This document shows positions 44,643 to 62,310 of a DNA stretch of 64,000 nt, one piece after another (position 1 is the first letter of the stretch; each line of letters opens with the position of its first letter). This DNA comes from Paenirhodobacter populi (GTDB lineage: Bacteria > Pseudomonadota > Alphaproteobacteria > Rhodobacterales > Rhodobacteraceae). The position numbers and the translations under genes are program-made. A model generated the notes under the pieces. That model was not told where the DNA came from. It did no database searches and saw only the letters and a program-made list of their open reading frames with translations. Location of the stretch: positions 1 to 64,000 of the forward strand of contig NZ_SAUZ01000023.1 of NCBI RefSeq assembly GCF_004022215.1, written 5' to 3'.

Positions 44643-45362
44643 ATCGATATCTGAGCGTCCTTCTGTCGGTCGATTGTTTGTCCGGATGCCCTTCAGCCAG
44701 TCGTCTTGGAATCCTCTCCGTCCCCGGAGAGAACATATGGCGCCGTAAGGGCATGATATGATTGTCGAATCCCCCAAGCCGCGATCAATCCAAAGATGAT
44801 GCAGCCACACACCCGGACAAGATCATGCCGGGCATCCAAGGGGGAACGTTGATTGACGGGACTCAGGGTAACGTCGCGTCCCCCGAGGGTCAACCCGATC
44901 GCCGACCAGCGCCGCAGGCCCCCGAATCCGCGGCGCTGCTACCCGGCGATGGCCCCGCGCGCCCCTGAACCAGCCTCCCATGAGTGCGCTGCGGAACCGC
45001 CCAGAGCGCCCTCCCTGCCATCATCTTTCCATAAATATCCCGGGGGTGAGCGCGGAACGCGCGAGGGGGCTGGCCCCCTGCTGCCCCTCCATACGCGCGC
45101 ATTTCGGTTTTGAAGGCCCATCCGCCAGCCCGATGATACCGGATGACCGACATGACCCGATCCCGCGCCGCCACAAACCTCCCCGCCCGCCAGACCTGAA
45201 CGCATCCGTCAAGTTAGCTATGACGAGATCGCGGTTCACAAACCCCCGGACTGCTTCTAAGCCTCGGATGTCCCGGCCTGACTCACCGGATCGGGATGTA
45301 TCTTCCGACCCGGCGCCGGGATCCGGAAGCAGGACCAACACCAACCGATCAGGAGCCGGAAC
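44643..45362. other. Divergent region, sugar porter / nitroreductase
   Basis: 720 bp with no supported gene. It holds element copy 9 (45024-45082) and AT-richer DNA near the porter start that probably contains its promoter. Short frames here lack ribosome sites and family similarity. Confidence 0.5.
45024..45082 (-). repeat. Intergenic element copy 9
   Basis: Core CCATAAATATCCCGGGGG, stem GCGCGGAACGCGC, stem GGGGGCTGGCCCCC; nearly identical to copy 7. The only copy in a divergent gap. Confidence 0.82.
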
Positions 45363-46890: not shown

Positions 46891-47126
46891 TCCGCCATCC
46901 CCGTCTGCATCACCTCCGGGATCATGCCCCGAAATGGGGATTCGGACCAGCCCGCCCTGCCCCTGCGTAAACTTTTCCGGCCGCGGCGGCGTATTGTGCC
47001 GAAATCGCCCGCCCTACCCCAAAGTTTCACGCTCATGCGGCCAAAGCCCGGCTCCTTCGCCGCGCCGCGGTCTTGCCCATCCCCCGCCGAACCCATACGG
47101 TGGCCGAAATCGAAAGCCCACGATAC

Positions 47127-49637
47127 ATGCCTTCCGCCAGCCGCTATCACGCCGCCCGCCGAGTCCTCTCCCACTTCTATCATATCCGCATGCGGGCAAA
47201 GCTGCGGAATATCGCGCTGCCTTCCGGGGGCGGGAAGATCACCGAAATCAGCCTGAGGGATGGCTTCATCACGCTCAGCGGGCAGGCCTCGCAGCCGTTC
47301 CGGCTGGTCAGCGACCGGGCCAGCGCCAGTCTTTTCCCCCGGCAGGACGGACAGTTTCAGGCCGTGCTCGAAGGGGCGCGCTACCTGACCATCGCCGATG
47401 CCGCGCAGGACGGCGAGACGGTGACGTTCCTCCTCGGCCGCCGCCGCGATCATGTTCTGGCGGCCCTGCGCTGCGCGACGGTCCTTGCGGCCTTTCCGCT
47501 GCAACATCATCGCGATCTGCGCGCCTATTTCCTGCGTGGCGACAGCGAGGCGGGTGACAGGCTGGAACGCAGCCTGCTGCCGATCCTCGCGCCCGCGGGC
47601 GGGATTCCGGTCCCGCGTGGGGCGACCGGGCTGCCGCCCGCGCCCCGCCCCGCGCCGCCCGTGCCGCAGGACAGGCCGGCCATCGTCATCCTGCCGGTCT
47701 ACAATGCCGCCGATCTGGTGCGGGAATGCCTCGACCACCTCGGCCGGAACACCACCTGCCCGCATCGCGTCCTGATCATCGACGACGCCTCGCCGGATCC
47801 GGTCATCCGGCCCCTGCTCGAGGCATGGGTCGCCGCCCATCCGCAGGCGGAGCTGTTGCGCAATCCGGAAAACCTCGGCTTCGTCGGCACGGTGAACCGC
47901 GGGCTTGCCCATGCGGCGGGGCATGATGTCGTGCTTCTGAACTCGGATGCGATGGTGCCGCCCGGCTGGCTCGAACGGCTGCTGCGCGCCTTGCACGAGA
48001 ATGACGAGATCGCCTCGGTCACCCCCCTGTCCAACGACGCCGAGATTTTCGCCGCGCCGGTCGAATGCCGCCCCCGCATCCTCGCCCCCGGCGAGGCGGA
48101 GGCCGCGGACCGCATGGCCGCCCGCCTCGACGGCACCGTCGCATGGGCCGAGGCACCGACCGGCGTCGGCTTCTGCATGGCGATGCGCCGTGAATGGCTG
48201 GAACGGCTGCCGCAGCTCGACACGATCTTCGGCCGCGGCTACGGCGAGGAGGTCGACTGGTGCCGCCGCACGGCGGCCCTTGGCGCGCGCCATGTCGGCA
48301 CGGGAACGCTGTTCGTCGAACACCGCTCCGGCAGTTCCTTTGGCGATGAAAAGCCCGCGCGGGTGCAGGCCAACAACCGGATCATCTCGGCCCGTTATCC
48401 CGGCTATGACCTGATGGTGCAGCAGTTCCGCGACCGCGATCCGCTGGCGGGGCCGCGCCTTGCCGTCGGGCTGGCGCTGCTGGCGGGGCGGCGGGACCGG
48501 CCTGAGCGGGGCTTTCCGGTCTGGCTGGCGCATCGCTGGGGTGGCGGGGCCGAGCTGTGGCTGAACGGCCAGATCGCCGAGGACATCGCGCAGGAAAACG
48601 GCGCGCTGGTGCTGCGCGATGCGAGCGAGGAAAGGGATGCCCCCGAAGGCGCTGTGCTGGCCGAGCTGCATTCCGCCGAGGGGATCACCCGCGTCATCCT
48701 TGAAGGCGAGGACATGGCCCGCCTGCTGGCGCAGATCCCGGTGCCGCTGGCGATCGGCTATTCCTGCCTTGCGGGCGCGCGCGATCCACTGGGCTTCATG
48801 CGCCGTCTGGACGAAACACTGACGCTTCGCGCCCGTGACGGCGACAGCTTGACCTTCCTGTTCCACGATTACCTGCCGCTGTGTCCCTCCTACACGCTGA
48901 TGGGGGCGAACCGGCAATATTGCGGGCTGCCGGGGCCGGAGGCGTGCCAGAAATGCTATGCCGCGCTGCCGGTGACCTCCGGCCGGCGTCCGGCGCGGAT
49001 CGCCGAGTGGCGCGCCGAATGGCTGCGGCTTGCCCGGCGGGCGCGGGAGATCATCGTCTTCTCGGCGGACAGCCGGCGGCATGTGGAAACCGTCTGGCCC
49101 GAGCTGGCGCCGAAAATCCGTCTCGCGCCGCACGAGGCCGGGCATCTGCCGCCACCCGTCGCACCGGGCGGATCGGCCGCGCTGACCGTCGGGGTTCTGG
49201 GGGCCATCGGCTACAACAAGGGCGCGGCGATCCTGCGCGATCTGGCGGCGCGGACGGGAAAGAGCTTCCGGCTGGTGCTGATCGGCAAGATCGACCCCGC
49301 CTATGCCCATCCCGGCATGACGATCCACGGCCCCTATCAGCGCGACGAGATCGCCGAGCTGGCGCGCCGCTATGCGCTGGATTGCTGGTTCCTGCCCTCG
49401 ATCTGGCCCGAGACATTTTCCTATACCGTCCACGAATGTCTGGCGACGGGGCTGCCGGTTCTGGGCTTCGATCTGGGCGCGCAGGGCGACAGCCTCAGGC
49501 AGGCCCCGAACGGGCTCGTCCTGCCGCTCGGCACGCCGCTGACGCCCGAATTGTTCGCCCAATCCCTGGGCCGCGATCCCTTGGCTGCCGTTGCGGCGGG
49601 GAAATCGGCGGCCAGACCGGCCCCGCATGACAATTAG
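47127..49637 (+). CDS. Two-domain glycosyltransferase (GT2 + GT4-like)
   Basis: An 836-aa protein from ATG 47127; a TTG 54 bases upstream is less likely. Residues 1-180 are a beta-rich region I do not recognise. A GT2 domain follows (about 184-440) with AIVILPVYNAADLVRECLDH, VLIIDDASPD (nucleotide-binding Asp), LLNSDAMVPPGWLERL and the acceptor-side GYGEEVDWCRRTAALGA. A GT-B/GT4-like domain ends the protein (about 460-836) with FHDYLPLCPSYTLMG, a Cys cluster (YCGLPGPEACQKC), GAIGYNKGAAIL and SIWPETFSYTVHECLATGLP. Such proteins build surface polysaccharide or glycolipid. It lies 305 bp upstream of the polyketide synthase on the same strand; a joint role is possible but not shown. Confidence 0.87.
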   Translation: MPSASRYHAARRVLSHFYHIRMRAKLRNIALPSGGGKITEISLRDGFITLSGQASQPFRLVSDRASASLFPRQDGQFQAVLEGARYLTIADAAQDGETVTFLLGRRRDHVLAALRCATVLAAFPLQHHRDLRAYFLRGDSEAGDRLERSLLPILAPAGGIPVPRGATGLPPAPRPAPPVPQDRPAIVILPVYNAADLVRECLDHLGRNTTCPHRVLIIDDASPDPVIRPLLEAWVAAHPQAELLRNPENLGFVGTVNRGLAHAAGHDVVLLNSDAMVPPGWLERLLRALHENDEIASVTPLSNDAEIFAAPVECRPRILAPGEAEAADRMAARLDGTVAWAEAPTGVGFCMAMRREWLERLPQLDTIFGRGYGEEVDWCRRTAALGARHVGTGTLFVEHRSGSSFGDEKPARVQANNRIISARYPGYDLMVQQFRDRDPLAGPRLAVGLALLAGRRDRPERGFPVWLAHRWGGGAELWLNGQIAEDIAQENGALVLRDASEERDAPEGAVLAELHSAEGITRVILEGEDMARLLAQIPVPLAIGYSCLAGARDPLGFMRRLDETLTLRARDGDSLTFLFHDYLPLCPSYTLMGANRQYCGLPGPEACQKCYAALPVTSGRRPARIAEWRAEWLRLARRAREIIVFSADSRRHVETVWPELAPKIRLAPHEAGHLPPPVAPGGSAALTVGVLGAIGYNKGAAILRDLAARTGKSFRLVLIGKIDPAYAHPGMTIHGPYQRDEIAELARRYALDCWFLPSIWPETFSYTVHECLATGLPVLGFDLGAQGDSLRQAPNGLVLPLGTPLTPELFAQSLGRDPLAAVAAGKSAARPAPHDN

Positions 49638-49942: not shown

Positions 49943-52900
49943 ATGTCTCAAACAGTTACTGTCGGATACGCGGCACGGTTGCCGAATGCCGGGGATGCCG
50001 GCGCCGCATGGCATATCCTGCGCGACGGGCAATGCACCGTATCGCAAATCCCGGATGACCGCTGGTCCTCGCTGAAATTCCTTGATCCGACGGGCACGCT
50101 GGCCGGGCACAGCCATACCCGCGCCGCGGGTGTTCTGGACGATCCCTGGGGTTTCGATCCGGCGGCCTTCGGGATTTCCCCGCGCGAGGCGGCGCAGATG
50201 GATCCGCAGCAGCGGCTGTTGCTGGAACTCGCCTCCGAGGCATTCGATCACGCCGGAATCAATCCGCAACGGCTCGACCGCGACCGCACCGGGGTTTTCA
50301 TCGGCGCTTCCGCCGCCGACCATTCGACCATCGGGTTGCAGGATCCGACGCTGATCGAATCGCATTACATGCTGGGCAATACGCTGTCGATTCTGGCGAA
50401 CCGGATTTCCTATCAATGGGACCTGCACGGGCCGAGTATGACCGTCGACACGGCCTGTTCCTCGGGGCTGGTGGCCTTCGACCTCGCCCGCAAGGCGATC
50501 GAGGCGGGCGAGATCGACACGGCCATCGTCGGCGGGGTCAGCCTGCTGCTGTCGCCGGTGGCCTTCATCGGCTTTTCCAACGCCGGAATGCTGTCGCACC
50601 GGGGCCGCTGCGCGGCCTTTGGCGCCGGGGGCGACGGTTACGTGCGGGCCGAAGGCGCGGTGGTCTTCATCCTCTCGCGCGCCGAAACCGCGCGCGCGGC
50701 GGGCTTGCGGCTGCGCTCGGTCGTCGCCGGCAGCGGGGTCAACACGGCGGGCTACACGCGCGGCATCACCATCCCCTCGCAAAGTCGTCAGGCGGACCTG
50801 ATCCGCGAGGTGATGGCCAGCAGCGGCATCGACCCCGACGACCTCGCCTTCGCCGAGGCGCATGGCACCGGCACCCCCGTCGGCGACCCGCGCGAGGCCG
50901 GGGCGCTTGGCGAAACCTACGGGCGGCTGCGCAAGACGCCTTTGCCGATCGGCTCGGCCAAAAGCAACTTCGGCCATCTGGAACCGGCCTCCGGCCTTGT
51001 CGGCCTGCTGAAGGCGCAGCTTGCGCTGGAACACCACTACATGCCGGCGACGCTGTTCGCGGACACGCCGAACCCTGACATCGATTTCACCGCCCTCAAT
51101 CTGGAACCGATGACCGAGGCCCGGCCCATGCCGCCCCATGCGCGGCCCTGGGCGGTTTCGGTCAATTCCTTCGGCTTCGGCGGCGCCAATGCGCATGTCG
51201 TGATCCGCGAACCGGATCCCGAGGACCGGATCGCCGAGGAAGACGATACCACCCTGCCGCCCGCGCTGATGATGACGGGGCAGAGCGAAACGGCCCTGAC
51301 AGCCGTGGCGCAGGACTGGCAATGGCTTCTGTCGGGGGCCGAACCGGACGACGCGCAACTGGCCACGCTGATCGCCAATGCCAACCACAATCTGGCCCGG
51401 CGCGCCCACCGCCTGTGCCTTGCCGCCGGCAGCCGCGAGGCGCTGCGCGACCAGGTCGACCGCTGGATCGCCGGGGATCACCCGGACCGCGCCGGCTTCC
51501 GCACGCGCGGGGATGACCTGCCCGTCGCCTTCGTCTTTTCCGGCAACGGCGCGCTGTGGGACGGGATGGCGCGGCAGAACTACATGAAGGACGCCGCCTT
51601 CCGCAAATCCTTCACCGAGATCGCCGCGCTGGTCGCGCAGGACGGTGGGCCCGATCTCGTCACCCTGCTGATGACCCCGCAGGACGAAGAGGCGATGCGC
51701 CCCGCGGGCATCGCGCAACCCCTGCATTTCGCCATTCAGGTGGCGCTGGTCGATTCCCTCGCCGCCACCGGGCTGCGCCCCGCCGCGGTGATGGGGCATT
51801 CCCTGGGCGAGGTCGCCGCCTCGGTCATCGCCGGGCGGATCAGCCGCAAGGAGGGCGTGCATATCATCCTCAGCCGCAGCGCGGCCTTCGCGCCGCTGGA
51901 AAATACCGGCGGCATGGCGGCGCTGTCGGGCGGGCGGCAGGCGGTGGCGGATCTGATCGCAGGTCTGGGCCTGCCGATCGACATCTCGGCGGAAAACGCC
52001 CCGGCCAGCGTGACGGTCAGCGGCGCGCAGGCGGATCTGGCGGCGCTGGTCAAGGCCGCGCGCAAGGCCCGCATCGCGGGCAAGGTCCTGCCCGTCGCCT
52101 ATCCCTACCACGGCCGCGCGGTCGCGGCGCTGGAATCGCGGATGCGGGCCGATCTGGCCGGCCTTGCGCCGCAGGCGGGAACCATCCCCTTCTATTCCGG
52201 CTCTCTGGGCTGCCGCGCCGATGCCGTCCCGTCGGACGCGGATTACTGGTGGTCCAACGCCCGCAACGCGGTCGAATTCCGCGCGGCGGCGGCGGCGATG
52301 GTGGCGGATGGCTATCGGATCTTCCTCGAAATCTCGCCCCGCAGCGTGCTGCGCGGCTATCTGGGCGAGATCATCGCGCAGAGCGGCGAACCCGCCGTGG
52401 TGATCGACGGGCTGGACCGCAGCCACCCCGAACTGCGTCTGGCCAGTGACATCGCCCGCCGGGTTCTGGCCGTCGGCGGCGCGGTGGAGGAAGAGCGGGT
52501 TCTGGGCCTCCGCCGCACGATGCGCTCGACCCCGCCACGCCCGGCCTTTGAACGCCAGCCCTTCCGTCTGGCCACCACGCATGGCCCCGATATCTTCGGC
52601 CGCGCGCCCGCCCATCCGCTGCTTGGCGCGCGAAGCGAGGCGGAGGGGACGATCTGGCGCAATGATCTGAGCCTCGCGCTGATGCCCTGGCTCGGCGATC
52701 ACCGGGTCGGCGGGCGCGTCCTGCTGCCCGCGACCGGCATGGCCGAGATATTCCTCGCCGCGGCGACAGATCTGGCCCGCGAGGGTGAGGCCGCCCCCGG
52801 CCCCTGCGAGATCGCCGATCTCGACATCTTCCACGCCGTGGTGATCCCCGAGGAAGGCGCGGCCCCGATCCGCGTGATCCACGATACGGCGGCGCGGCGG

Positions 52901-55900
52901 CTGACGCTGGAAACCGGCGGCGACGGGCAATGGCAGGCGGTGGCGACGGCGCGGCTATTCAGCGCCGCCAGCGCGGCCGACCTGATCCCCGAGGTGATGC
53001 GCAATCCCGGTGCGAATGATCCCGCGCCGCTGCCCGGACTGTATGACGGCCTGCGCCGCGCCGGTCTGGAGTACGGCCCCGCCTTCGCGCGGCTGGCCGG
53101 TCTGTCGCAGACCCCGAACGGCGCGCTGGCGGACCTGTCCCCCGCGCTGGTCCCCGGCGATTTCCTGCTCGATCCCACGGCTTTCGACGCGGCGCTGCAT
53201 GCGGTGGCGGCGCTTCCGGCCTTTGCGGCGATGGCGGCGGGCAACGGGCCGATGGTGCCCGGCCGGATGGGTCGCCTGCGCTGGTTCGACAAGGCTCCGG
53301 TGACCCGCGCCCGGCTGCATCTGCGCTCCTTCGGGCCGGAAAGCGCCTGCCTTGACCTCGCGCTGTTCGGTGACGATGGCGGGCTCGTCGCGCTGATCGA
53401 GGAAATCCGTCTGCGCCGGATGCCGATGACCCACGGGGCCGAGACGCTCTACTGGGATGAGGTCCTGCTGCCCCTGGCCGGGGAACGCCGGATCGCCCTT
53501 GCCGATCCGCTGTCCCGTTTCAGCGCTGGCGAAGACGCGGCGAGCGATGCCGATGTGCTGCGCGCCGCCATCGCCGCGCGGCTCGCCTGGGATATCGCCG
53601 GTTCCGACGACACCACGATCCCCGAAGCCCGCCGGCAGCTCAGCCGCGCCTGGCTGAACGAGGCGGGATACCTGTCGCCCGAGGGTCTGGCGGGGGAATG
53701 CCCCTGGCCGCCGGTCGGCGAGTTGGTCGCCATGCTCGGCGCCCTGCCCGGGGATGTGCAGGACGATCTGCAGGCGAGCCTGAGCCTTGCCGCCGGGCGG
53801 ACGCCAAAGCCGGATGCGGGCACACACCCGACCGCGCAACTGATCGACATGCTGGACAGCCTGCCCGAAGGCAGCGCGGGCCGGGTGCTGATCGCGGGCC
53901 GCGCCGATGCCACGCTGATCGCCGCGGCGGCGCGGGTCGGCGGCGGCTATGTCACGCTTGCGGCGGCGGATGCTGCCGGGGCCGGGGCGCTGCGGCCCCT
54001 CGTGGCCGAGGCAGAGGCGGCGGTGGCGGTCCTGCGTCTGGACGAAGAGGCGCAGGCCGGTCAGCTCTTCGATCTGATCCTTGGCGCCGGGGTGTCGAAC
54101 GGCCCCCTCGCCCCGCGTCAGTTGGCCCGGTTCGTCGCCCCCGGTGGTTCCGTGCTGTTCGCCGAGGAAACGCCGGACCTTTTCGCCCTTCTCAGCGGCC
54201 GTCACACCGATGGCGAGGCGATCGAGCGGCTGCAAGCCGCCTTCGCCGCAACCGGGGTTTCGCTTGCCGCGCGGCCCTCGCACAAGTCCGAAGCGGTGAC
54301 GCTGCTGCAAGGCGCACGGACCGGGGAGGCGCAGGATCTCGCCCTTCCCGAAGGCGACCTTGCGGCTGTCCTGGCCGCGATGCCGGATGCCCCCCTGTTC
54401 CGGCTGGTGCCGGATGCGCCGGCGGGCGAAACCGCGTCGGCGCGGGCGATCCGCCATGCCGCGACCTTCCGCGATCTGCCCGAGACGGACGGGCCGCTGT
54501 GGATCGTGGCGCTGTCGGCAGAGGACTCGGCGGCGCTGTTCGCGCTCCGCCGGGTGGTCGCCAATGAAAGCGGACGGGATCTGCGGGTGCTTGCGCTGAC
54601 CCCTGCGGCCCCGGCGACGACGGGCGATCTGGCGCGGCGCATTGCGCGGCTGACGCAGGCCCCGGAACGCGAGATCGTGGCGGACGACCGGCAGGGAACC
54701 CCCGCCGCCAGCCCGCGGATCGTCGCGGTCACCCCGCCGCAGCCACCCGCAGCCGGGGGGGAAGACACGCTCCTGCGGCTGTCGGCACGGCGGCGGACGC
54801 CGGTGCTCGACGGGCTTTACTGGCAACGCCTGCCGCGCCCCGCACCCGCCCCGGGCGAGGTCGAGATCGCGGTCGAGGCATCGGCGCTCAACTTCCGTGA
54901 CGTGATGTGGGGACAGGGCCTGATCCCGCCCGAGGCGCTGGAAGGCGGCTTTGCCGGGCAGGGTTTCGGCATGGAATGCGCGGGCCGCGTGCTGCGCTGC
55001 GGGGCCGACGTGCCGCCGCATCTGGCACCGGGAACGCCGGTCATCGCCTTTGCGCCGCATGCCTTTGCCAGCCATGTGACCGTCCCCGCCCATGCGGTGA
55101 TGCCGCGCGGCGCGGACATGCCCGCCGAGATCGCCACCGCCGCGCCCGTCGTCTTCCTGACCGCGGATTACGCGCTGAACGAGCTGGCGCGCCTGACGAC
55201 CGGGGAGACGATCCTGATCCACGGCGCGGCCGGCGGTGTCGGCATCGCGGCGATCCAGATCGCGCAGCGGATCGGGGCGCGGATCATCGCCACCGCCGGT
55301 TCCGTGGAAAAGCGGCTCTGGCTGGGCATGATCGGAGTCGACACGGTGCTGGACAGCCGGGCGGGCGATTTCGCCGACCGGGTGATGGCGGAAACCGGCG
55401 GCCACGGCGTCGATGTGGTGCTGAACGCGCTGGCGGGCGAAGGGCTGGAACGCGGTCTGTCCTGCCTTGCGCCCTTCGGCCGGTTCGTCGAACTGGGCAA
55501 GCGCGACATCTATGAGAACAACCTGATCGCACTCAGGGCGTTTCGCAACAATATCAGCCTGCTGGCGGTGGATGCGGATCAGCTTCTGGCCTATCGGCCC
55601 AAGGTGGCGGCGCGGATCATGGACCGCGTCGGCCGCGGGCTGGCGGAAGGCACGCTGACCCCGCCGCCGGTGCGGGTCATGGCCGCGGATGAGGTGACGG
55701 ACGCCTTCCGGCTGATGCAGCGCTCGGGCCATATCGGCAAGATCGTCGTGCGTGCGCCCCACCCCGCCGGGCGGGCTCCGGCGCGGCGGACGGATCTGTC
55801 GGGCAACTGGCTGATCACCGGCGGCACCGGCGGCTTCGGCTACCGGACCGCGCTCTGGCTGAAGCAGCAGGGGGCGGAGCGGATCTGGCTGACCTCGCGC

Positions 55901-56962
55901 TCGGGCCGTCATGAAGGTGCGCTGCCCGAGGGCTTCACGCTGCGCGCGGCGGATGCGACGGATGCCGTGGCGATGCAGGCGGTTCTGGACGAAATCGCGG
56001 CGGCGGGCGGCCTTTCGGGCGTCATCCACAGCGCGGCGGTGCTGGACGACGCGCTGTTCGCCACGCTGGATCCCGCGCGCATCGGCCGGGTGGCCGGGGC
56101 CAAGGCCGGGGGGGCCGAACTGCTCGACCGGCTGACGCGCGACCTGCCCTTGCGGCATTTCTGGTGCTTCAGTTCCGTCGCGGCGCGGTTCGGCAACCCC
56201 GGACAGGCGGCCTATGCCGCCGCCAATGCGGAGACCGAGGCGCTGATGCGCCGCCGCCGGGACGCGGGCCTGCCCGGTCTGGCGATCGCCTGGGGGCCGA
56301 TCTCGGATACCGGGATGCTCGCCCGCGACGCGGCGCTGCGCGCGACGCTGACGGCACAGCTTGGCCGGCTGCTCACGGCGGAGGAGGCCTTGCAGGCCCT
56401 TGCCGCATGGCTTGCCGACGCGCCCGCGCAGGCGGCGACCGTCACCATCGCGCCCATTCGCTGGGGCCGTCTGGCGGGCGACCTGCCCGTCCTGTCCTGC
56501 CCCCTCTTTGCCGCCATCGACACGGAAATGGCGCGCGCCGCAGGCAGCGTCGATCTTGCCGCGCTGATAGCTGCCGGCAAGGAAGGCGAGGCGCGGCGCA
56601 TCGCGCTGGAGGCGGTGCTGACCGAGGCGGCGCAGATCATGCGCACCACCCCCGCCGCGATCGACCCGCAGCGCCCGCTGACGGATCTGGGACTCGACAG
56701 CCTGATGGCGATGAACCTTAAACTGGCGATCGAGGAACGCTTCGGCGTGGACATCCCGGCCCGCGCGCTTGCGGGCGAACCCAGCCCCGCGCGGCTGGTC
56801 CAGAGCCTGTTCGACACGATCAGCGGCGGCAGCGCCGGGGCGCAGGGCGCCGTTCTGGTCGAGGCGCATCTGAGCGAAACCATCCTGACCGACGTCGTCA
56901 GGGCGGAAATCATGGAACGCACACGCGCCCCTTCGGCGGGCATGGAGGCACGGCGGAACTGA
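49943..56962 (+). CDS. Monomodular reducing type I polyketide synthase (KS-AT-DH-ER-KR-ACP)
   Basis: A 2339-aa single-module synthase. KS (about 5-425): Cys172 in VDTACSSGLVAFDLA, His307 in EAHGTGTPVGD, His345 in NFGHLEPASG. AT (about 525-830): Ser620 in GHSLGEVAAS. DH (about 888-1165): His920 in WLGDHRVGGRVLLPATG, Asp1082 in FDAALHAV. A central region (about 1180-1600) has no clear catalytic motif. ER (about 1605-1940): ALNFRDVMWGQG and HGAAGGVGIAAIQIAQ. KR (about 1950-2185): LITGGTGGFGYRTALWL and Tyr in GQAAYAAANAE. ACP: Ser2253 in LGLDSLMAMN. All reducing domains look intact, so an iterative synthase making a saturated or mostly reduced chain is expected. There is no thioesterase; the next gene is a candidate release enzyme. 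Confidence 0.95.
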   Translation: MSQTVTVGYAARLPNAGDAGAAWHILRDGQCTVSQIPDDRWSSLKFLDPTGTLAGHSHTRAAGVLDDPWGFDPAAFGISPREAAQMDPQQRLLLELASEAFDHAGINPQRLDRDRTGVFIGASAADHSTIGLQDPTLIESHYMLGNTLSILANRISYQWDLHGPSMTVDTACSSGLVAFDLARKAIEAGEIDTAIVGGVSLLLSPVAFIGFSNAGMLSHRGRCAAFGAGGDGYVRAEGAVVFILSRAETARAAGLRLRSVVAGSGVNTAGYTRGITIPSQSRQADLIREVMASSGIDPDDLAFAEAHGTGTPVGDPREAGALGETYGRLRKTPLPIGSAKSNFGHLEPASGLVGLLKAQLALEHHYMPATLFADTPNPDIDFTALNLEPMTEARPMPPHARPWAVSVNSFGFGGANAHVVIREPDPEDRIAEEDDTTLPPALMMTGQSETALTAVAQDWQWLLSGAEPDDAQLATLIANANHNLARRAHRLCLAAGSREALRDQVDRWIAGDHPDRAGFRTRGDDLPVAFVFSGNGALWDGMARQNYMKDAAFRKSFTEIAALVAQDGGPDLVTLLMTPQDEEAMRPAGIAQPLHFAIQVALVDSLAATGLRPAAVMGHSLGEVAASVIAGRISRKEGVHIILSRSAAFAPLENTGGMAALSGGRQAVADLIAGLGLPIDISAENAPASVTVSGAQADLAALVKAARKARIAGKVLPVAYPYHGRAVAALESRMRADLAGLAPQAGTIPFYSGSLGCRADAVPSDADYWWSNARNAVEFRAAAAAMVADGYRIFLEISPRSVLRGYLGEIIAQSGEPAVVIDGLDRSHPELRLASDIARRVLAVGGAVEEERVLGLRRTMRSTPPRPAFERQPFRLATTHGPDIFGRAPAHPLLGARSEAEGTIWRNDLSLALMPWLGDHRVGGRVLLPATGMAEIFLAAATDLAREGEAAPGPCEIADLDIFHAVVIPEEGAAPIRVIHDTAARRLTLETGGDGQWQAVATARLFSAASAADLIPEVMRNPGANDPAPLPGLYDGLRRAGLEYGPAFARLAGLSQTPNGALADLSPALVPGDFLLDPTAFDAALHAVAALPAFAAMAAGNGPMVPGRMGRLRWFDKAPVTRARLHLRSFGPESACLDLALFGDDGGLVALIEEIRLRRMPMTHGAETLYWDEVLLPLAGERRIALADPLSRFSAGEDAASDADVLRAAIAARLAWDIAGSDDTTIPEARRQLSRAWLNEAGYLSPEGLAGECPWPPVGELVAMLGALPGDVQDDLQASLSLAAGRTPKPDAGTHPTAQLIDMLDSLPEGSAGRVLIAGRADATLIAAAARVGGGYVTLAAADAAGAGALRPLVAEAEAAVAVLRLDEEAQAGQLFDLILGAGVSNGPLAPRQLARFVAPGGSVLFAEETPDLFALLSGRHTDGEAIERLQAAFAATGVSLAARPSHKSEAVTLLQGARTGEAQDLALPEGDLAAVLAAMPDAPLFRLVPDAPAGETASARAIRHAATFRDLPETDGPLWIVALSAEDSAALFALRRVVANESGRDLRVLALTPAAPATTGDLARRIARLTQAPEREIVADDRQGTPAASPRIVAVTPPQPPAAGGEDTLLRLSARRRTPVLDGLYWQRLPRPAPAPGEVEIAVEASALNFRDVMWGQGLIPPEALEGGFAGQGFGMECAGRVLRCGADVPPHLAPGTPVIAFAPHAFASHVTVPAHAVMPRGADMPAEIATAAPVVFLTADYALNELARLTTGETILIHGAAGGVGIAAIQIAQRIGARIIATAGSVEKRLWLGMIGVDTVLDSRAGDFADRVMAETGGHGVDVVLNALAGEGLERGLSCLAPFGRFVELGKRDIYENNLIALRAFRNNISLLAVDADQLLAYRPKVAARIMDRVGRGLAEGTLTPPPVRVMAADEVTDAFRLMQRSGHIGKIVVRAPHPAGRAPARRTDLSGNWLITGGTGGFGYRTALWLKQQGAERIWLTSRSGRHEGALPEGFTLRAADATDAVAMQAVLDEIAAAGGLSGVIHSAAVLDDALFATLDPARIGRVAGAKAGGAELLDRLTRDLPLRHFWCFSSVAARFGNPGQAAYAAANAETEALMRRRRDAGLPGLAIAWGPISDTGMLARDAALRATLTAQLGRLLTAEEALQALAAWLADAPAQAATVTIAPIRWGRLAGDLPVLSCPLFAAIDTEMARAAGSVDLAALIAAGKEGEARRIALEAVLTEAAQIMRTTPAAIDPQRPLTDLGLDSLMAMNLKLAIEERFGVDIPARALAGEPSPARLVQSLFDTISGGSAGAQGAVLVEAHLSETILTDVVRAEIMERTRAPSAGMEARRN

Positions 56963-58321
56963 ATGACCCAGCAGACCAACAGCCAGAAGCTGGACGCCCT
57001 GCGCCGGCTTCACGCCAGCACCCGCCACGCCCGCCCGGCCACGCCGGAACGGGGTGTGGCGAAGCCTGCCTCCTCCCGCACCGATTTCACCACGCTGCCG
57101 GCCTGGAAGGAAATGCAGTTCGGCCTTGCCACGGCGGCGGCGCTTGGCCTCGATCCGCCGTTCTTCCGGCCGGTTTCGGCGGCGCGGGGCACGCAATTGT
57201 GCATCAACGGCCAGTGGGTGGAGAATTTCGCCTCCTACGACTACCTGTCGCTGAACCGCAGCCCGGCGGTGGCGGGCGCGGTGGCGCAGGCGGTGGCCGA
57301 CTGGGGCGTGTCCGCGACCGCCTCGCGGCTGGTCGGCGGCAATCTGGCCTATCACGACGCGCTTGAGGATGAGCTGGCCGATTTCCTTGGCACCGAGGCG
57401 GCGCTGACGATGGTGTCCGGCCACGGCACCAATCAGGCGATCCTGCGCACGCTCTGCGGGCCGGGCGACCTGATCGCGGTCGATCAACTCGCGCATAATT
57501 CGATCTACGAGGGCATCCGGGTTTCCGGTGCCGCGCATGTGACCTTTCCGCATAACAATACCGACTGGCTCGACCGCAAGCTGTCGGAAATCCGCGAGGA
57601 TTACGACCGCGTGCTGGTGGTGACAGAGGGGCTGTTTTCCATGGATGGCGACGTGCCCGATCTGGCGCGGTTCACCGCGATCCGGCGCCGGCACGACACC
57701 TGGCTGATGCTCGACGAGGCGCATTCCATCGGGGTTCTGGGCAAGACCGGCCGTGGCATCCGCGAGGAACAGGGCATCGACCCCGGTGAGGTCGACATCG
57801 TCATGGGCACGCTGTCCAAGACCTTCTGTTCCGCCGGGGGCTTTGTCGCCGGGTCGCGCGCGCTGATCGAGACGATCGGCTTCAAGGCGCCGGGGTTCAT
57901 CTATTCGGTGGGCCTGTCGGCGCCGCATGCGGCGGCCTCGCTCGCCGCGCTGCGGGCGTTGCGCGCGGATCCGGGCCTGACCGAACGGCTGCGCGGGCTC
58001 GGCCGGCATTTCCGTGCGCGGGCGCAGGCGGCCGGGCTCGATTGCGGGCCGAGCGAGGGCTACGCCATCGCCCCGGTCATGCTGGGCGACAGCGTGCGCG
58101 CGACATGGATCTCGAACCAGTTGCTGGCGGCGGGGTTCAACGTGCTGCCGATCATCGCGCCCGCGGTGCAGGAACGTCACGCGCGGCTGCGGTTCTTCCT
58201 CAACGTCGGGCATGACGAAGCGGTGATCGATGCGGTGATCGCCAAGACGGCCGAACTGGTGGCGCTTGCCACGCAGGGCGGGTTCGACATTGCCGCGACG
58301 GCCGCGGCTCAGCGGGGCTGA
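56963..58321 (+). CDS. PLP-dependent alpha-oxoamine synthase (AONS-like), likely chain-release enzyme
   Basis: A 452-aa fold-type I PLP enzyme of the 8-amino-7-oxononanoate synthase / serine palmitoyltransferase / KBL family. PLP Lys286 is in MGTLSKTFCSAGGF, Asp251 in LMLDEAHSIGVLGKTGRG, and the ring-stacking His178 region is VDQLAHNSIYEGI. The roughly 75-residue N-terminal extension is longer than in BioF. The ATG directly follows the synthase stop (TGAATG), so both are coupled. Alpha-oxoamine synthases join an acyl thioester and an amino acid with loss of CO2. Placed after a synthase without thioesterase, it most likely releases the chain as an alpha-amino ketone, as in fumonisin or vitroprocine biosynthesis. 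The amino acid used cannot be read. Confidence 0.93.
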   Translation: MTQQTNSQKLDALRRLHASTRHARPATPERGVAKPASSRTDFTTLPAWKEMQFGLATAAALGLDPPFFRPVSAARGTQLCINGQWVENFASYDYLSLNRSPAVAGAVAQAVADWGVSATASRLVGGNLAYHDALEDELADFLGTEAALTMVSGHGTNQAILRTLCGPGDLIAVDQLAHNSIYEGIRVSGAAHVTFPHNNTDWLDRKLSEIREDYDRVLVVTEGLFSMDGDVPDLARFTAIRRRHDTWLMLDEAHSIGVLGKTGRGIREEQGIDPGEVDIVMGTLSKTFCSAGGFVAGSRALIETIGFKAPGFIYSVGLSAPHAAASLAALRALRADPGLTERLRGLGRHFRARAQAAGLDCGPSEGYAIAPVMLGDSVRATWISNQLLAAGFNVLPIIAPAVQERHARLRFFLNVGHDEAVIDAVIAKTAELVALATQGGFDIAATAAAQRG

Positions 58322-58336: not shown

Positions 58337-59095
58337 CTATTCCGCCGTCCAGCCGCCATCCAGCAGCATCGACGTCCCCGTCATCAGGGCGGAGGCGTCC
58401 GAGGCCAGATACAGCGCCGCCCCGACGATATCGGACACCTGCCCCAGCCGGCCGATCTTGATCATCCGCATGCAATGCGCGTGAAAGGCCGGATCCTCGA
58501 AATAGGGTTTCGTCAGAGGGGTTTCGATGAAGGTCGGGCAGATCGTGTTGACCCGGATCTTCAGCGGCGCCAGTTCGATCGCCGTCGCCTTCGTCAGCCC
58601 CTCGATCCCCCATTTCGTCGCACAATAGAGCGCGCGGTTCTCGGCCCCGATATGGCCCATCTGCGAGGACATGTTGATCACCGAGCCGCCCCGGCCGAGC
58701 GCCTTCATCCGCCGCGTCGCGCTTTGCAGCGCGAAGAAGGCCGCGCGCAGGTTCAGCCCCACGACCAGATCGAAATCCTCCTCGGTCACCTCCATCTGCG
58801 GCCTCGGGCGGTTCGTGCCGGCGTTGTTGACGAAGATGTCCAATCGGTCGAGCCCCTCGGTCACCGCGCGGAAGGCCGCGATATCGGTGACGTCGCAGGG
58901 CACGGCGCGGGCCCGGTAGCCGTTCGACGTCAGGTCCCGGGCAAGCGCGCCGATCTCGTCGGCGGAACGGGCGCACAGGATCACCTCGGCGCCCGCCTGG
59001 GCATAGACCTCGGCGATGGCGCGACCGATGCCCCGCCCCGCCCCCGTCACCAGAGCGGTCCGTCCCCTGAGCGAAAAGTCCGGCATCGGGGTCAT
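58337..59095 (-). CDS. SDR-family dehydrogenase/reductase
   Basis: A 252-aa classical [23 protein letters not shown] is the cofactor loop, [13 protein letters not shown] the NAG motif, and Ser-Tyr-Lys are in [12 protein letters not shown] and [13 protein letters not shown]. The Asp-free loop ([10 protein letters not shown]) hints at NADP preference. The start at 59095 overlaps the stop of the HisD-like gene (ATGA); a longer frame upstream is not used. It is the last gene of the 58-64 kb operon and converges on the oxoamine synthase with 15 bp between stops. A role in polyketide ketone reduction is conceivable, but the operon places it in catabolism. Confidence 0.9.
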
Positions 59096-60402
59096 TGCGC
59101 GGCCTCCCCATAGGCGACGTTGTCGCCGCCATAACGGCGGACACGGATATTGGCTTGTTCGGCATGGCCGACAAAGCCCTCGAGCAGGCACAGACGTGAA
59201 CAATAGCGCCCGACATGCGCGGCGGCCTCGTCCGTGGTGACCCGCTGATAGGTGTGGGTCTTGAGGAATTTCCCGACCCACAGACCCCCGGTATAGCGCC
59301 CGGCGCGGCGGGTGGGCAGCGTGTGGTTCGTACCGATGACCTTGTCGCCATTCGCCACATGCGTGCGCGGGCCAAGGAACAGCGCCCCATAGGCCCGCAT
59401 GTTTTCCAGATACCAGTCGTCGCGGTCGGTCATGACCTGCACATGTTCCGAGGCGATTTCATTGGCGACATCCAGCATCTCCTCATGCGTGTCGCACAGG
59501 ATGACCTCGCCGTAATCCGCCCAAGATCTGCCGGCGGTCGCGGCGGTGGGCAGGATTTGCAGCAGCCGCTCGATTTCCGCCATCGTGCCCTCGGCCAGCG
59601 CGCGCGAATTGGTCAGCAGGACGGCGGGCGAGTTGTAGCCATGCTCGGCCTGTCCCAGAAGGTCGGTGGCGCAAAGCTCGGCGTCGACCGTATCGTCGGC
59701 GATCACCATCGTCTCGGTCGGCCCGGCGAAGAGGTCGATGCCGACGCGGCCGAACAGCTGCCGCTTCGCCTCGGCGACGAAGGCGTTGCCGGGGCCGACC
59801 AGCATGTCGACCGGCGCGATCGTTTCGGTGCCGATCGCCATCGCCCCGATCGCCTGGATGCCTCCGAGAACGTAGATTTCATGCGCGCCGGCGAAATGCA
59901 TCGCGGCGATGACGGCGGCGTTCGGCTTGCCCTGAAACGGCGGCGTCGCGGCGATGATCCGCGGCACCCCCGCCACCGCCGCCGTCAGCACCGACATATG
60001 CGCCGAGGCGACCATCGGGAACTTCCCCCCCGGCACGTAGCAGCCGACCGCCTGCACCGGGATGTGCTTGTGGCCGAGGATCACGCCGGGAAGGGTTTCC
60101 ACCTCGACATCGCGCATGGATTCCCGCTGGATCCGCGCGAAGTTCCGCACCTGATCCTGGGCAAAGCGGATATCGGCGATCTCGCTATCGCTCAGCGTGG
60201 CGATCAGCGCGTCGATCTGGTCCGGCGACAGGCGGAAGCTGTCGGGCGTGTAGCCGTCGAATTTGGCGGCCATCTCGCGGACCGCCACGTCGCCGCGCGC
60301 CGCGATATCGGCAAGCGCCGCCTCCACGGCCTCGCGCGTCTGGCGGTCATCCTCGGCGCGGGCGGTGTCGCTGCGGCCGCGTTTCAGGTAAGTGATGGTC
60401 AT
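59092..60402 (-). CDS. Histidinol-dehydrogenase-like zinc alcohol dehydrogenase
   Basis: A 436-aa HisD-family protein. It keeps the NAD region ([20 protein letters not shown]), [13 protein letters not shown], the zinc ligands Gln and His in [17 protein letters not shown] and the conserved late [15 protein letters not shown]. The gene is outside any his operon and among catabolic genes. Like sulfopropanediol 3-dehydrogenase HpsN, such paralogues oxidise a primary alcohol to a carboxylate in two NAD steps. Its YLKRG start resembles that group. AGGAGGATGCA precedes ATG 60402. Substrate not known. Confidence 0.88.
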
Positions 60403-60412
60403 TGCATCCTCC

Positions 60413-61345
60413 TCAGAAATCCACCCGGTCGCCGCCCTTGAGCGCCAGCATCTCGCGTGCCTCGTCCGGGGTGGCGACGGTCAGCCCCAGCCCTTCGATG
60501 ATCTGGCGCGCCGCGCGGACCTGTGCGGCGTTGCTTTCCGCCAGACGGCCCTTGCCCGCCCACAGATTGTCCTCCAGCCCGACGCGCACATGCCCGCCCA
60601 TCGCCGCCGACATCGCCGCGATCGGCAACTGGTTTCTTCCCGCGCCCAGAACCGACCAGCGGTAATCGTCGCCGAACAGCCGGTCAGCGGTGCGCTTCAT
60701 GTGCAGGACATCATCGGGATGCGCGCCGATACCGCCCATCAGCCCGAAGACGGTCTGGATGAACAGCGGCCCCCGGACCAGCCCACGATCGAAAAAGTGC
60801 TTCAGGTTGTAGAGATGCGAGATGTCGTAGCATTCGAATTCGAACCGTGTGCCACCGGCGCCAAGGGTGGACATGACATGTTCCACATCGCCGAAGGTGT
60901 TGCGGAAGATGATGTCCTTGTTGCCCAGATAGTCCCGTTCCCATTGATGCCTGAGTTGCGGGGCATAGCGGTCCAGCATCGGGAACAGGCCGAAATTCAT
61001 CGTCCCCATGTTGAGCGAGGCCAGCTCCGGCCGGTAATGCTGCGCGGGGCGGATACGCTCGGCGATCGCCATGGTCGGCGCGCCGCCCGTTGTGATGTTC
61101 AGCACCGCATCCGTCGCCTGCCGGATGACGCCGAGGATCGGGCGGAAGGCCTCGACGCTCTGGTCCGGCGCGCCGTCGCTTTCGTTGCGCGCATGCAGAT
61201 GGACGATGGCGGCGCCCGCCTCGGCCGCGCCGATGGCGGCCTCGGCGATCTCGGCGGCGCTGACCGGCAGGTAGGGCGACATCGAGGGGGTGTGGATCGC
61301 GCCCGTCACGGCGCAGGTGATGATGACTTTTCCTTGCAGGCTCAC
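60413..61345 (-). CDS. BKACE-family (DUF849) beta-keto acid cleavage enzyme
   Basis: A 310-aa TIM-barrel zinc enzyme. The zinc HxH is in [18 protein letters not shown] and the catalytic Glu in [38 protein letters not shown] is the usual opening. BKACE enzymes react a beta-keto acid with acetyl-CoA to give acetoacetate and a new CoA ester. GTG 61345 was chosen with AGGAG about 9 bases upstream; an upstream ATG would overlap the preceding gene deeply. It lies between the hydroxyacyl dehydrogenase and HisD-like genes, which could make its beta-keto acid substrate. Confidence 0.92.
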
Positions 61346-61349
61346 GGCG

Positions 61350-62300
61350 TTACTCCTGTGCGTGATCATGTTGCGCCCGCGCGGCCAGATGCTGCGCAAG
61401 GGCGGCGAGTTCAGCGTCGCGCCAGTTCTGGCGCGCGCGCACGGTTTCGGGGGCGGAGACATCCGCGAAGGCCGCCCCGACGGTGGCGGCGACCGCGAGG
61501 GTGAAGGCCTCGTCCCGCGCCGCGCCTTGTGCGAGACCCGCCATCATCGCGCCGTAGCGCGTCAGGTAATCCCCCGCCCCGCCCGGGGCATTGAGGTTGA
61601 TCGTCTCCATCGGCCCCATGAAGGCCCATCGGCGGCCAAGCCCGTGCCGGATCGTGTCGTCCAGCCCCCGCACGTCGACATAACCCTGTTCGATCAGCCG
61701 CAGGCTTTCGGCCAGCACCACGGCCTGCAGGCGGTTGAGGATGAAGCCGTCGATCTCGCGTTGCAGCACGACGGGCACCTGCCCCGCGGCGGCGTAGATC
61801 GCCCGGGCGCGGTCCGTCACCGCCGGGTCGGTGAACGGAGCGGGGGCGATTTCCACCACCGGCACCAGATGCGGCGGGTTGACCGGATGCCCGACCAGAC
61901 AACGGGCCCGCCCCGGCAGTCCCCCGGCGAAGCGCGAGGCCATGAGCGCCGAGCTGCTGGAGGCAAGGATCGTCTCCGGCGCGGCGATGGCATCCAGCCG
62001 CGCGAAAAGCGCGCGCTTGGTGTCCAGCACCTCGGGGCCGCTTTCCTGCGCAAGCGCGGCGCCGTCCAGCGCCTCCTCGGGCGTCGTGACGGCGCGGATC
62101 CGCGCCGCCGTCGCCCTCGGATCCGTGCCCGCCTGACCGAAGGGCGCGGTCTGTTCCACCATCCCGGCGATATCGTCGGGCAGGCGGTCCAGCACGGCGG
62201 GCTGCGGGTCCCAGACGCGGACCTCGGTCCCCGCGCGGGCGAAGACGAAGGCCCAGCCCCGTCCGATCAGCCCCGCCCCGATGATGGCGATATGGGTCAT
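61350..62300 (-). CDS. 3-hydroxyacyl-CoA dehydrogenase-like (carnitine dehydrogenase/lambda-crystallin group)
   Basis: A 316-aa NAD-dependent dehydrogenase. The NAD loop is IAIIGAGLIGRGWAFVFARA, the catalytic His-Pro is in CLVGHPVNPPHLVPVVEIAP with Asn close by, and FILNRLQAVVLAESLRLIEQ marks the C-terminal helical domain. The single-domain length fits L-carnitine dehydrogenase and L-gulonate 3-dehydrogenase rather than fused FadB. It oxidises a 3-hydroxy acid to a 3-oxo acid, exactly what the BKACE enzyme encoded next would use. GAGGAGGCAGGC precedes the ATG. Confidence 0.9.
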   Translation of the reverse strand: MTHIAIIGAGLIGRGWAFVFARAGTEVRVWDPQPAVLDRLPDDIAGMVEQTAPFGQAGTDPRATAARIRAVTTPEEALDGAALAQESGPEVLDTKRALFARLDAIAAPETILASSSSALMASRFAGGLPGRARCLVGHPVNPPHLVPVVEIAPAPFTDPAVTDRARAIYAAAGQVPVVLQREIDGFILNRLQAVVLAESLRLIEQGYVDVRGLDDTIRHGLGRRWAFMGPMETINLNAPGGAGDYLTRYGAMMAGLAQGAARDEAFTLAVAATVGAAFADVSAPETVRARQNWRDAELAALAQHLAARAQHDHAQE

Positions 62301-62310
62301 GCCTGCCTCC

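What the first reader, a model, noticed from the sequence alone, without database searches (positions are those of the whole stretch)
49943..58321. Stand-alone reducing polyketide synthase coupled to an alpha-oxoamine synthase: predicted amino-ketone (sphingoid-like) product
A complete KS-AT-DH-ER-KR-ACP module without thioesterase is followed with zero spacing by a PLP oxoamine synthase with intact Lys286/Asp251. Oxoamine synthases are known to release polyketides in fumonisin (Fum1/Fum8) and vitroprocine biosynthesis. A two-gene bacterial version with one iterative module could make a long-chain alpha-amino ketone resembling 3-ketosphinganine.
Basis: partly seen in the sequence, partly recalled or inferred. 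Interest (0 to 1): 0.78.

Follow-up and report, generated by a model that had tools for sequence, protein, structure and literature searches.

The report
Sphingoid-lipid synthase pair, capsule-type
Two adjacent bacterial genes look like a known kind of machine that builds a sphingolipid-like fat, and their relatives and a partner gene elsewhere in the genome point to a job making the lipid end of a cell-surface sugar capsule.

Summary
Window 49943-56962(+) encodes an intact KS-AT-DH-[~470 aa]-ER-KR-ACP polyketide synthase (PKS) with no thioesterase hit. Abutting it, 56963-58321(+) encodes a PLP alpha-oxoamine synthase (AOS; K286, D251). The predicted chemistry is supported by homology but not new: the Pseudomonas two-gene cluster PfSgaAB (PMC12134224, 2025) makes C24-C28 sphinganines. 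The window pair is a new member of that kind. 'Stand-alone' is misleading. In 53 of 67 named relatives with at least 5 kb held downstream, scored capsule genes lie nearby; Ensifer relatives show the rkpA-G-H-I-J order. The reductase-type SDR, often next to the pair in relatives, is in this genome on another contig (C78) inside a KpsS/KpsM/T/E/D-like capsule locus. In a sample of 149 family genomes, the seven with the best PF05159 (KpsS/KpsC) score are exactly the seven with the adjacent pair, seen after the fact. Best reading: PKS + AOS + C78 SDR make a sphingoid base that serves as lipid terminus of a capsule, which would explain the 'lipid carrier' role assigned to rkp-1. The sphingoid step rests on a published homologous enzyme; the capsule step is inferred. 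No RkpI-type headgroup enzyme was found in this genome.

The parts
49943..56962 (+). Iterative-type reducing type I PKS (SgaA/RkpA-like), 2339 aa
   Evidence: iteration is inferred
49955..51208 (+). KS domain (DTACSSG, HGTGT, NFGH intact)
51530..52432 (+). AT domain (GHSLGE; YPYH near the usual substrate motif)
52613..53428 (+). DH domain (HxxxGxxxxP and DPTAFDAAL)
53429..54838 (+). Region between DH and ER, about 470 aa, probably degenerate methyltransferase plus structural pseudo-KR; about 60-165 aa shorter than in 26 of the 29 relatives aligned
   Evidence: no Pfam hit; naming is inference; structure prediction could not be run
54851..55750 (+). ER domain (LIHGAAGGVG)
55802..56305 (+). KR domain (GGTGGFG, Tyr/Asn motif)
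56612..56803 (+). ACP domain (Ser in GLDSL)
56963..58321 (+). PLP alpha-oxoamine synthase (SgaB/RkpG-like), 452 aa, start codon abuts the PKS stop codon
47073..49637 (+). Fused GT2+GT1/4 glycosyltransferase, 854 aa, 305 bp upstream; among the loci held, homologues lie in PKS-AOS loci of three other genomes (L031 44% over 754 aa; L020/L028, one genome, 37% over 695 aa; L075 41% over 252 and 33% over 224 aa); tentative part, as such glycosyltransferases are common

Best explanation
The pair is an SgaAB/RkpAG-type sphingoid-base synthase displaced from an rkp-type capsule locus. Step 1 (inferred from domains and homology): the PKS repeats full reduction cycles to make a long saturated acyl chain on its ACP; without a thioesterase the chain stays bound. 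Step 2 (shown for the published homologue PfSgaB, inferred here): the AOS takes the acyl group and condenses it decarboxylatively with L-serine, giving a 3-ketosphinganine. Step 3 (inferred): the RkpH/SgaC-type SDR on contig C78 (101604-102374) reduces it to a sphinganine-like base. Step 4 (inferred, least certain): the base receives a phosphoglycerol-type headgroup, becomes a lyso-PG-like acceptor for the KpsS-type Kdo transferases encoded beside that SDR, and ends up as the lipid terminus of a capsule exported by the KpsM/T/E/D-like proteins of that locus. My estimates: sphingoid-type product 0.85; dedicated to the C78 capsule locus given that, 0.65; phosphoglycerol headgroup in this organism 0.35.
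For: Domains and AOS intact, no TE hit. The window AOS is below the curated cut-offs of the BioF, KBL, ALAS and SPT models and groups in a tree with PKS-linked L031, L026 and L027 (no support values shown). PfSgaAB precedent. Of 80 named loci, 76 carry a PKS ORF over 600 aa, 75 of them immediately upstream. Scored capsule genes lie in 53 of 67 named loci with at least 5 kb held downstream, 54 of 79 overall (cluster labels checked on one or two representatives each). An SDR of one BLAST cluster lies within 150 bp downstream of the AOS in 43 of the 86 non-window stretches. Own genome: the C78 SDR scores 3.3e-96 against 2.0e-41 for the next of 48 hits and lies beside two KpsS-like genes, KpsM-, KpsE- and Poly_export-like genes and an ABC ATPase. 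Six C78 proteins (SDR, both KpsS-like, KpsM, KpsT, KpsE) are 43-67% identical to those of the L026 and L027 loci, which keep the PKS-AOS pair. In 149 family genomes AOS and this SDR co-occur (7 both, 4 AOS only, 1 SDR only; Fisher 9.2e-9; 1.9e-5 without three genomes whose SDRs built the profile). The seven genomes with the best PF05159 score are exactly the seven with the adjacent pair.
Against: No product was measured, and PfSgaAB could not be aligned. The strict test (adjacent pair against SDR, trained-in genomes removed) is weaker: 2 both, 2 pair only, 3 SDR only, p 0.0055, and the own genome counts as a carrier by construction. G012 and G104 carry the pair without an SDR at 1e-60, though each has a more distant SDR of the same cluster in its capsule locus. 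14 of 67 well-flanked named loci show none of the scored capsule genes. The PF05159 ranking was noticed after the fact, the genomes are not independent, and the margin to the eighth is thin (205.9 against 203.4 bits). In this genome the pair is at least about 36 kb from the capsule locus, so co-regulation is unproven. In the second split genome, G083, the SDR lies beside two KpsS-like genes but no KpsM or KpsE match was found in the 20 kb taken, only a weak ATPase match. No RkpI-type headgroup enzyme was found (without a positive control; the PF00884 hit on C45 is unrelated). A reference title calls the S. meliloti 1021 poly-Kdo anchor a 'phospholipid anchor' (Fraysse 2005, seen only in a reference list), which may mean an ordinary phospholipid. 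From recall only, rkp-1 mutants still make intracellular polymer, which argues against an obligatory primer role.
Confidence: 0.58

Rival explanations
1. Same chemistry, different purpose: the pair makes free sphingoid bases or PG-sphingolipids as secreted or membrane lipids (secondary metabolites), unconnected with capsule in this organism since it left the capsule locus.
For: PfSgaAB products are free sphinganines and putative PG-sphingolipids, and the paper's main text does not mention capsule, rkp or wcb. In this genome the pair is not next to the capsule genes.
Against: The reductase and two KpsS-like genes of the C78 locus match the capsule locus of close relatives, and the best PF05159 score ranks exactly the pair-carrying genomes first. 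A glycosyltransferase with homologues in PKS-AOS loci sits just upstream of the window pair.
Confidence: 0.27
2. The AOS is the organism's biotin (BioF), KBL or ALAS enzyme and has no link to the PKS.
For: TIGR00858 bioF is its best NCBIfam hit (327.6 bits).
Against: Below the bioF cut-off of 426.45 and below those of the KBL, ALAS and SPT models. The genome holds another homologue on C78:53210, 33% identical, presumably ALAS (identity not tested). Most AOS sampled around it lie directly behind a PKS.
Confidence: 0.03
3. The PKS releases a free acid or passes its chain to another enzyme, and the AOS works on ordinary acyl-CoA or acyl-ACP from fatty acid synthesis.
For: PfSgaB was assayed with, and accepts, C16-CoA and two further acyl-CoAs.
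Against: No TE hit in the PKS, conserved two-gene adjacency, AOS and PKS matches in one open frame in L141, and loss of sphinganines in the sgaA deletion.
Confidence: 0.08
4. The pair is a silent remnant, left behind when the capsule locus on C78 changed its lipid supply.
For: Separation from the capsule locus; patchy distribution: 11 of 149 family genomes have the AOS at 1e-60, and a same-genus genome (G046) does not.
Against: Both reading frames and all motifs looked for are intact, and the C78 SDR frame is open.
Confidence: 0.06

Closest known systems
PfSgaA-PfSgaB(-SgaC), Pseudomonas fluorescens MYb115 (PMC12134224, 2025)
   Same: Monomodular iterative PKS plus adjacent AOS, with a reductase SDR as third enzyme. 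Locus-tag spacing of sgaA, sgaB and sgaC (RS19805, RS19800, RS19775) equals that of PKS, AOS and SDR in Pseudomonas sp. TMW 2.1634 (RS26445, RS26440, RS26415), where the genes between and after include capsule genes; that MYb115 has the same genes there is inference.
   Different: The window has no SDR of this type beside the pair.
RkpA-RkpG-RkpH-RkpI-RkpJ, Sinorhizobium rkp-1 capsule region
   Same: Ensifer loci such as L074 show PKS, AOS, SDR, RkpI-like and KpsS-like proteins in this order; a Sinorhizobium meliloti record shows PKS, AOS, SDR, an unannotated stretch of about 1.7 kb and a capsule biosynthesis protein. Window AOS and PKS are 44-45% and 38% identical to the latter. The names rkpG-J are assigned by gene order, not by a labelled record.
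   Different: No RkpI found in the window genome; pair and SDR are on different contigs.
WcbR-type capsule PKS of Burkholderia (as described in PMC3908369, passages)
   Same: PKS linked to capsule genes; a Paraburkholderia dioscoreae plasmid locus has PKS, AOS, SDR, LTA-synthase-family and capsular genes together.
   Different: There a deacetylase gene lies between PKS and AOS; the window has none.
Fungal Fum1/Fum8 and sphingofungin PKS-AOS
   Same: Works alike: reducing PKS chain offloaded by an AOS (recalled; PMC12134224 names the KDSR homologues FUM13 and SphF).
   Different: Not tested by sequence here.
SwfA of sponge symbionts (PMC3908369, abstract and passages)
   Same: Mono-modular KS-AT-DH-ER-KR-ACP.
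   Different: Swf is followed by a reductase-sulfotransferase, not an AOS, and has altered DPQQR and HGTGT motifs; the window PKS has both.

Membership tests
SgaAB/RkpAG PKS-AOS pair | One complete reducing PKS module without TE | tested here: met
SgaAB/RkpAG PKS-AOS pair | AOS encoded directly downstream, catalytic residues intact | tested here: met
SgaAB/RkpAG PKS-AOS pair | AOS groups with PKS-linked AOS | tested here: met
   58 sequences, FastTree, rooted on the C78 homologue L113, no support values displayed; 18 named loci chosen from 79; two genomes occur twice; PKS linkage of the short loci judged on about 1.5 kb of flank
SgaAB/RkpAG PKS-AOS pair | Direct sequence relationship to PfSgaA/PfSgaB | not tested
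   MYb115 sequence not obtained; Pseudomonas sp. TMW 2.1634 pair used as a stand-in (AOS 46% identical over 393 aa)
SgaAB/RkpAG PKS-AOS pair | Serine-specific condensation and sphinganine product | not testable with these tools
   needs enzymology and LC-MS
rkp-1 type capsule-lipid pathway | RkpH/SgaC-type SDR present | tested here: met
   C78:101604-102374, E 3.3e-96, first of 48 hits, next 2.0e-41; the SDR beside the window pair is not it
rkp-1 type capsule-lipid pathway | KpsS/KpsM/T/E/D-like genes with that SDR | tested here: met
   L115; PF05159 far above its cut-off, the NCBIfam Kps models hit below their equivalog cut-offs
rkp-1 type capsule-lipid pathway | RkpI-like (LTA-synthase-superfamily) protein | tested here: not met
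   no hit in own genome (no positive control); PF00884 hit on C45 unrelated by BLAST
rkp-1 type capsule-lipid pathway | PKS-AOS pair clustered with the capsule genes | tested here: not met
BioF / KBL / ALAS / canonical SPT models | Score above curated NCBIfam cut-off | tested here: not met
Swf PKS family | R+ST partner; DPQQR and HGTGT altered | tested here: not met

The most novel reading that the evidence does not exclude
Rkp/Wcb-type capsules across Proteobacteria are anchored on a PKS-made phosphosphingolipid instead of a glycerophospholipid. RkpA/SgaA and RkpG/SgaB make a ketosphinganine, RkpH/SgaC reduces it, RkpI (LTA-synthase superfamily) adds glycerophosphate to give the +154 Da PG-sphinganine proposed for MYb115, and KpsS starts the Kdo linker on this lyso-PG look-alike. 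The sga sphingolipid cluster and the rkp-1 lipid-carrier cluster would then be the same pathway, and the window genome carries a split version of it.
Probability: 0.42. Interest if true: 0.82.

Novelty: new member of a known kind. Interest (0 to 1): 0.52.

Why it matters
On its own the pair adds one more carrier of a pathway published in 2025. The wider value is that two lines of work seem to describe one pathway: bacterial PKS-derived sphingolipids (Sga) and the rhizobial and burkholderial capsule 'lipid carrier' genes (Rkp/Wcb). If so, the question which lipid the rkp-1 cluster makes, raised by work from 1993 and 1997 cited in the papers seen, becomes testable by targeted lipidomics and a KpsS assay, and many of the 6,101 reported PKS-AOS clusters could be surface-polysaccharide genes. 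That the link is not in print is claimed only for what I searched: the Sga paper's main text has no rkp, wcb, capsule or capsular (its supplements were not seen), and searches listed no other paper that makes it.

Tried and rejected
Window SDR 58337-59281(-), convergent and 16 bp from the AOS, sits where many relatives carry the reductase, so I first took it for SgaC/RkpH; BLAST and tree reject this (24-31% identity to the adjacent SDRs compared, outgroup) and it lies against the HisD-like gene. BioF/KBL/ALAS/SPT naming rejected by curated cut-offs. Swf family rejected. PF05159 presence alone is not informative, since 133 of 149 family genomes have it; only the ranking of the best score is, and that was noticed after the fact. 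My label 'KpsC' for one neighbour cluster found no NCBIfam hit and was left out, with RkpI, of the capsule count; the earlier count (63 of 87) included both. RkpI as an explanation of the headgroup step fails for this genome. In one search an LTA-type Thr motif was found in 19 of 22 RkpI-like ORFs plus both plasmid proteins; L068, L075 and L051 lack it by that pattern. A sulfatase CxPxR pattern was absent in 22 of 22 but matched once in the Paraburkholderia plasmid protein. Neighbour clusters come from single-linkage BLAST of open-frame ORFs and include antisense frames; counts are by locus, labels rest on one or two representatives. The 87 stretches hold two genomes twice (L019/L026, L020/L028). 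Structure prediction of the DH-ER region could not be run.
Full report
What is there. The reported genes are real and correctly placed. The PKS (49943-56962, 2339 aa) contains KS, AT, DH, ER, KR and ACP domains in this order with intact motifs and no thioesterase hit. The AOS (56963-58321, 452 aa) starts with the base after the PKS stop codon and has Lys286 in LSK and D251EAH. Between DH and ER lie about 470 aa without a Pfam hit; in the alignment of the window and 29 relatives I see by eye a methyltransferase-like stretch without a SAM-binding motif and the conserved 'LWGxGRVxxNE' of a pseudo-KR (the naming is mine). The window and three near relatives have 471-474 aa here, the other 26 have 531-639.

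What the AOS is. It scores 327.6 bits against bioF (cut-off 426.45) and lies below every curated cut-off among the ALAS, KBL and SPT models listed. Solved relatives are headed by bacterial serine palmitoyltransferases 3a2b and 8guh, E 5.2e-61. In a tree of 58 AOS it groups with L031, L026 and L027, all PKS-linked. Eight AOS without a detected PKS (L016-L018, L143, L144, L146, L147, L150) form their own clade, and three more lie elsewhere (L015, L135, L148); linkage of the short loci was judged on about 1.5 kb. The genome's other close homologue, on C78, is 33% identical and I take it to be ALAS without having tested it.

The family is known. Peters et al. 2025 (PMC12134224; abstract, sections 7, 8, 9 and 15, and passages read) showed that PfSgaAB of Pseudomonas fluorescens MYb115 makes C24, C26 and C28 sphinganines, that PfSgaB condenses acyl-CoAs with L-serine almost exclusively, that compounds 154 Da heavier, most likely phosphoglycerol sphingolipids, also occur, that an SDR (SgaC) is the proposed ketosphinganine reductase, and that 6,101 homologous clusters exist. 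I could not fetch PfSgaAB; the nearest stand-in is the pair on the Pseudomonas sp. TMW 2.1634 plasmid, AOS 46% identical.

Distribution. In 149 genomes of the window's family, 11 have the AOS at 1e-60; 7 of these 11 have the PKS adjacent, the window's own included. In 398 phylum genomes, 24 have the AOS at 1e-110. Of these 80, 76 hold a PKS ORF over 600 aa, 75 of them directly upstream; of the four without, three have at most about 2 kb upstream of the AOS in the contig, and L094 has 10 kb without one.

Surroundings of relatives. Clustering the ORFs of 87 stretches (window, 6 unnamed, 80 named; two genomes counted twice) showed recurring neighbours: an SDR, KpsS-like proteins (PF05159), KpsM, an ABC ATPase, KpsE, a KpsD/Wza-like exporter, KpsF and an RkpI-like sulfatase/LTA-synthase-superfamily protein; the labels rest on representatives. 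Scored capsule genes (KpsS, D, M, T, E, F) occur in 53 of 67 named loci with at least 5 kb held downstream of the AOS, in 1 of 12 with less, 54 of 79 in all (one of the 80 had no clustered AOS ORF). Ensifer loci show PKS, AOS, SDR, RkpI-like and KpsS-like in this order; a S. meliloti record shows PKS, AOS, SDR, an unannotated stretch and a capsule protein. This matches the order rkpA-G-H-I-J. [quoted passage not shown] Kiss 1997 and Mueller 2009 were not held.

The missing partner in this genome. The SDR next to the window pair is a different SDR. A profile of ten RkpH/SgaC-type SDRs finds, among 48 hits, one at 3.3e-96 on C78:101604-102374, next best 2.0e-41. It lies beside two KpsS-like genes and KpsM-, KpsE- and Poly_export-like genes and an ABC ATPase. 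Six of these proteins are 43-67% identical to those of the L026 and L027 loci, which still contain PKS and AOS; the Poly_export protein had no match there, where the held stretches end soon after KpsT. Contig lengths put at least about 36 kb between pair and locus. A second family genome, G083, is also split: pair on C58, SDR and two KpsS-like genes on C72. Its SDR is 44% identical to that of C78 over 229 aa and its KpsS-like proteins 41-44%; no KpsM or KpsE match and only a weak ATPase match turned up in the 20 kb taken.

Statistics. AOS against SDR in 149 genomes: 7 both, 4 AOS only, 1 SDR only, 137 neither, Fisher 9.2e-9; without the three genomes whose SDRs were in the profile 4/4/1/137, 1.9e-5. 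Adjacent pair against SDR: 5/2/3/139, 2.0e-6; without the three, 2/2/3/139, 0.0055. The own genome is a carrier by construction. The two pair carriers without the SDR at 1e-60, G012 and G104, have a more distant SDR of the same BLAST cluster in their capsule loci. PF05159 occurs in 133 of 149, so presence says nothing, but the seven genomes with the best score are exactly the seven with the pair (3.6e-12 if genomes were independent and the test planned, and neither is so; the margin to the eighth genome is 2.5 bits).

Mechanism proposed. PKS chain on ACP, AOS plus serine to 3-ketosphinganine, C78 SDR to sphinganine, headgroup addition, KpsS-type Kdo transfer, polymer and export. KpsS starts the Kdo linker on (lyso-)PG in E. 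coli K5 (PMC7694667, passages). A sphinganine carrying phosphoglycerol resembles lyso-PG (inference). RkpI-like ORFs lack the sulfatase CxPxR pattern (22 of 22) and 19 of 22 have a 'GYTLRTEF' motif that I read as LTA-synthase-like (motif meaning recalled); RkpI-like proteins are 25-34% identical to proteins annotated 'LTA synthase family' in two plasmid loci, of which the Paraburkholderia one does match CxPxR once. They are candidates for the glycerophosphate step where present. The window genome has none that I could find, so the headgroup step is open there. One PPTase-family hit (C5:87663) could activate the ACP. The fused glycosyltransferase at 47073-49637, upstream of the pair, has homologues in PKS-AOS loci of three other genomes (L031, L020/L028, L075).

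Verdict. Observation confirmed, chemistry supported by homology, class known, a new member with a split gene arrangement. The capsule connection is the part worth following up.

Noticed in passing
window 58337-63951 (-): SDR, HisD-like dehydrogenase, BKACE, 3-hydroxyacyl-CoA dehydrogenase-like and ABC transporter genes form an apparent catabolic operon convergent with the AOS; its SDR imitates the position of the SgaC reductase but is not of that type.
   Followed up: partly
window 43136-44810 (-): An MFS sugar transporter is split over two reading frames (Sugar_tr 2-314 and 306-450), with what looks by eye like an imperfect tandem repeat of about 70 bp near 43560-43680 at the break.
   Followed up: partly
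L141; Planktothrix agardhii plasmid NZ_LR882937.1 30545-31708: AOS and PKS matches lie in one open frame (L141), and in Planktothrix the AOS match lies under an annotated type I PKS: possible fused PKS-AOS proteins.
   Followed up: no
L016, L017, L018, L143, L144, L146, L147, L150: A separate clade of AOS without a detected PKS, 38-48% identical to the window AOS; two family genomes with PKS-less AOS (G095, G126) also have an SDR at 1e-60 against the RkpH/SgaC profile. Function not examined.
   Followed up: no
L151 6335-29089 (Pseudomonas sp. TMW 2.1634 plasmid): PKS-AOS with phytanoyl-CoA dioxygenase, GNAT, LTA synthase family, SDR, capsular and kdsA/kdsB/KpsF-family genes on a plasmid typed as mobilizable.
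   Followed up: partly
L152 (CP090106.1): The S. meliloti record holding the rkp-1-like region is titled pSymB but is 3.7 Mb and carries secD, while PMC3557214 calls rkp-1 chromosomal; the title may be wrong.
   Followed up: no
L033 391-2037 and seven other loci, mostly Roseibium: A cluster of ORFs just upstream of the PKS in eight loci; its one representative tested resembles trimethylamine methyltransferase, below the cut-off.
   Followed up: no
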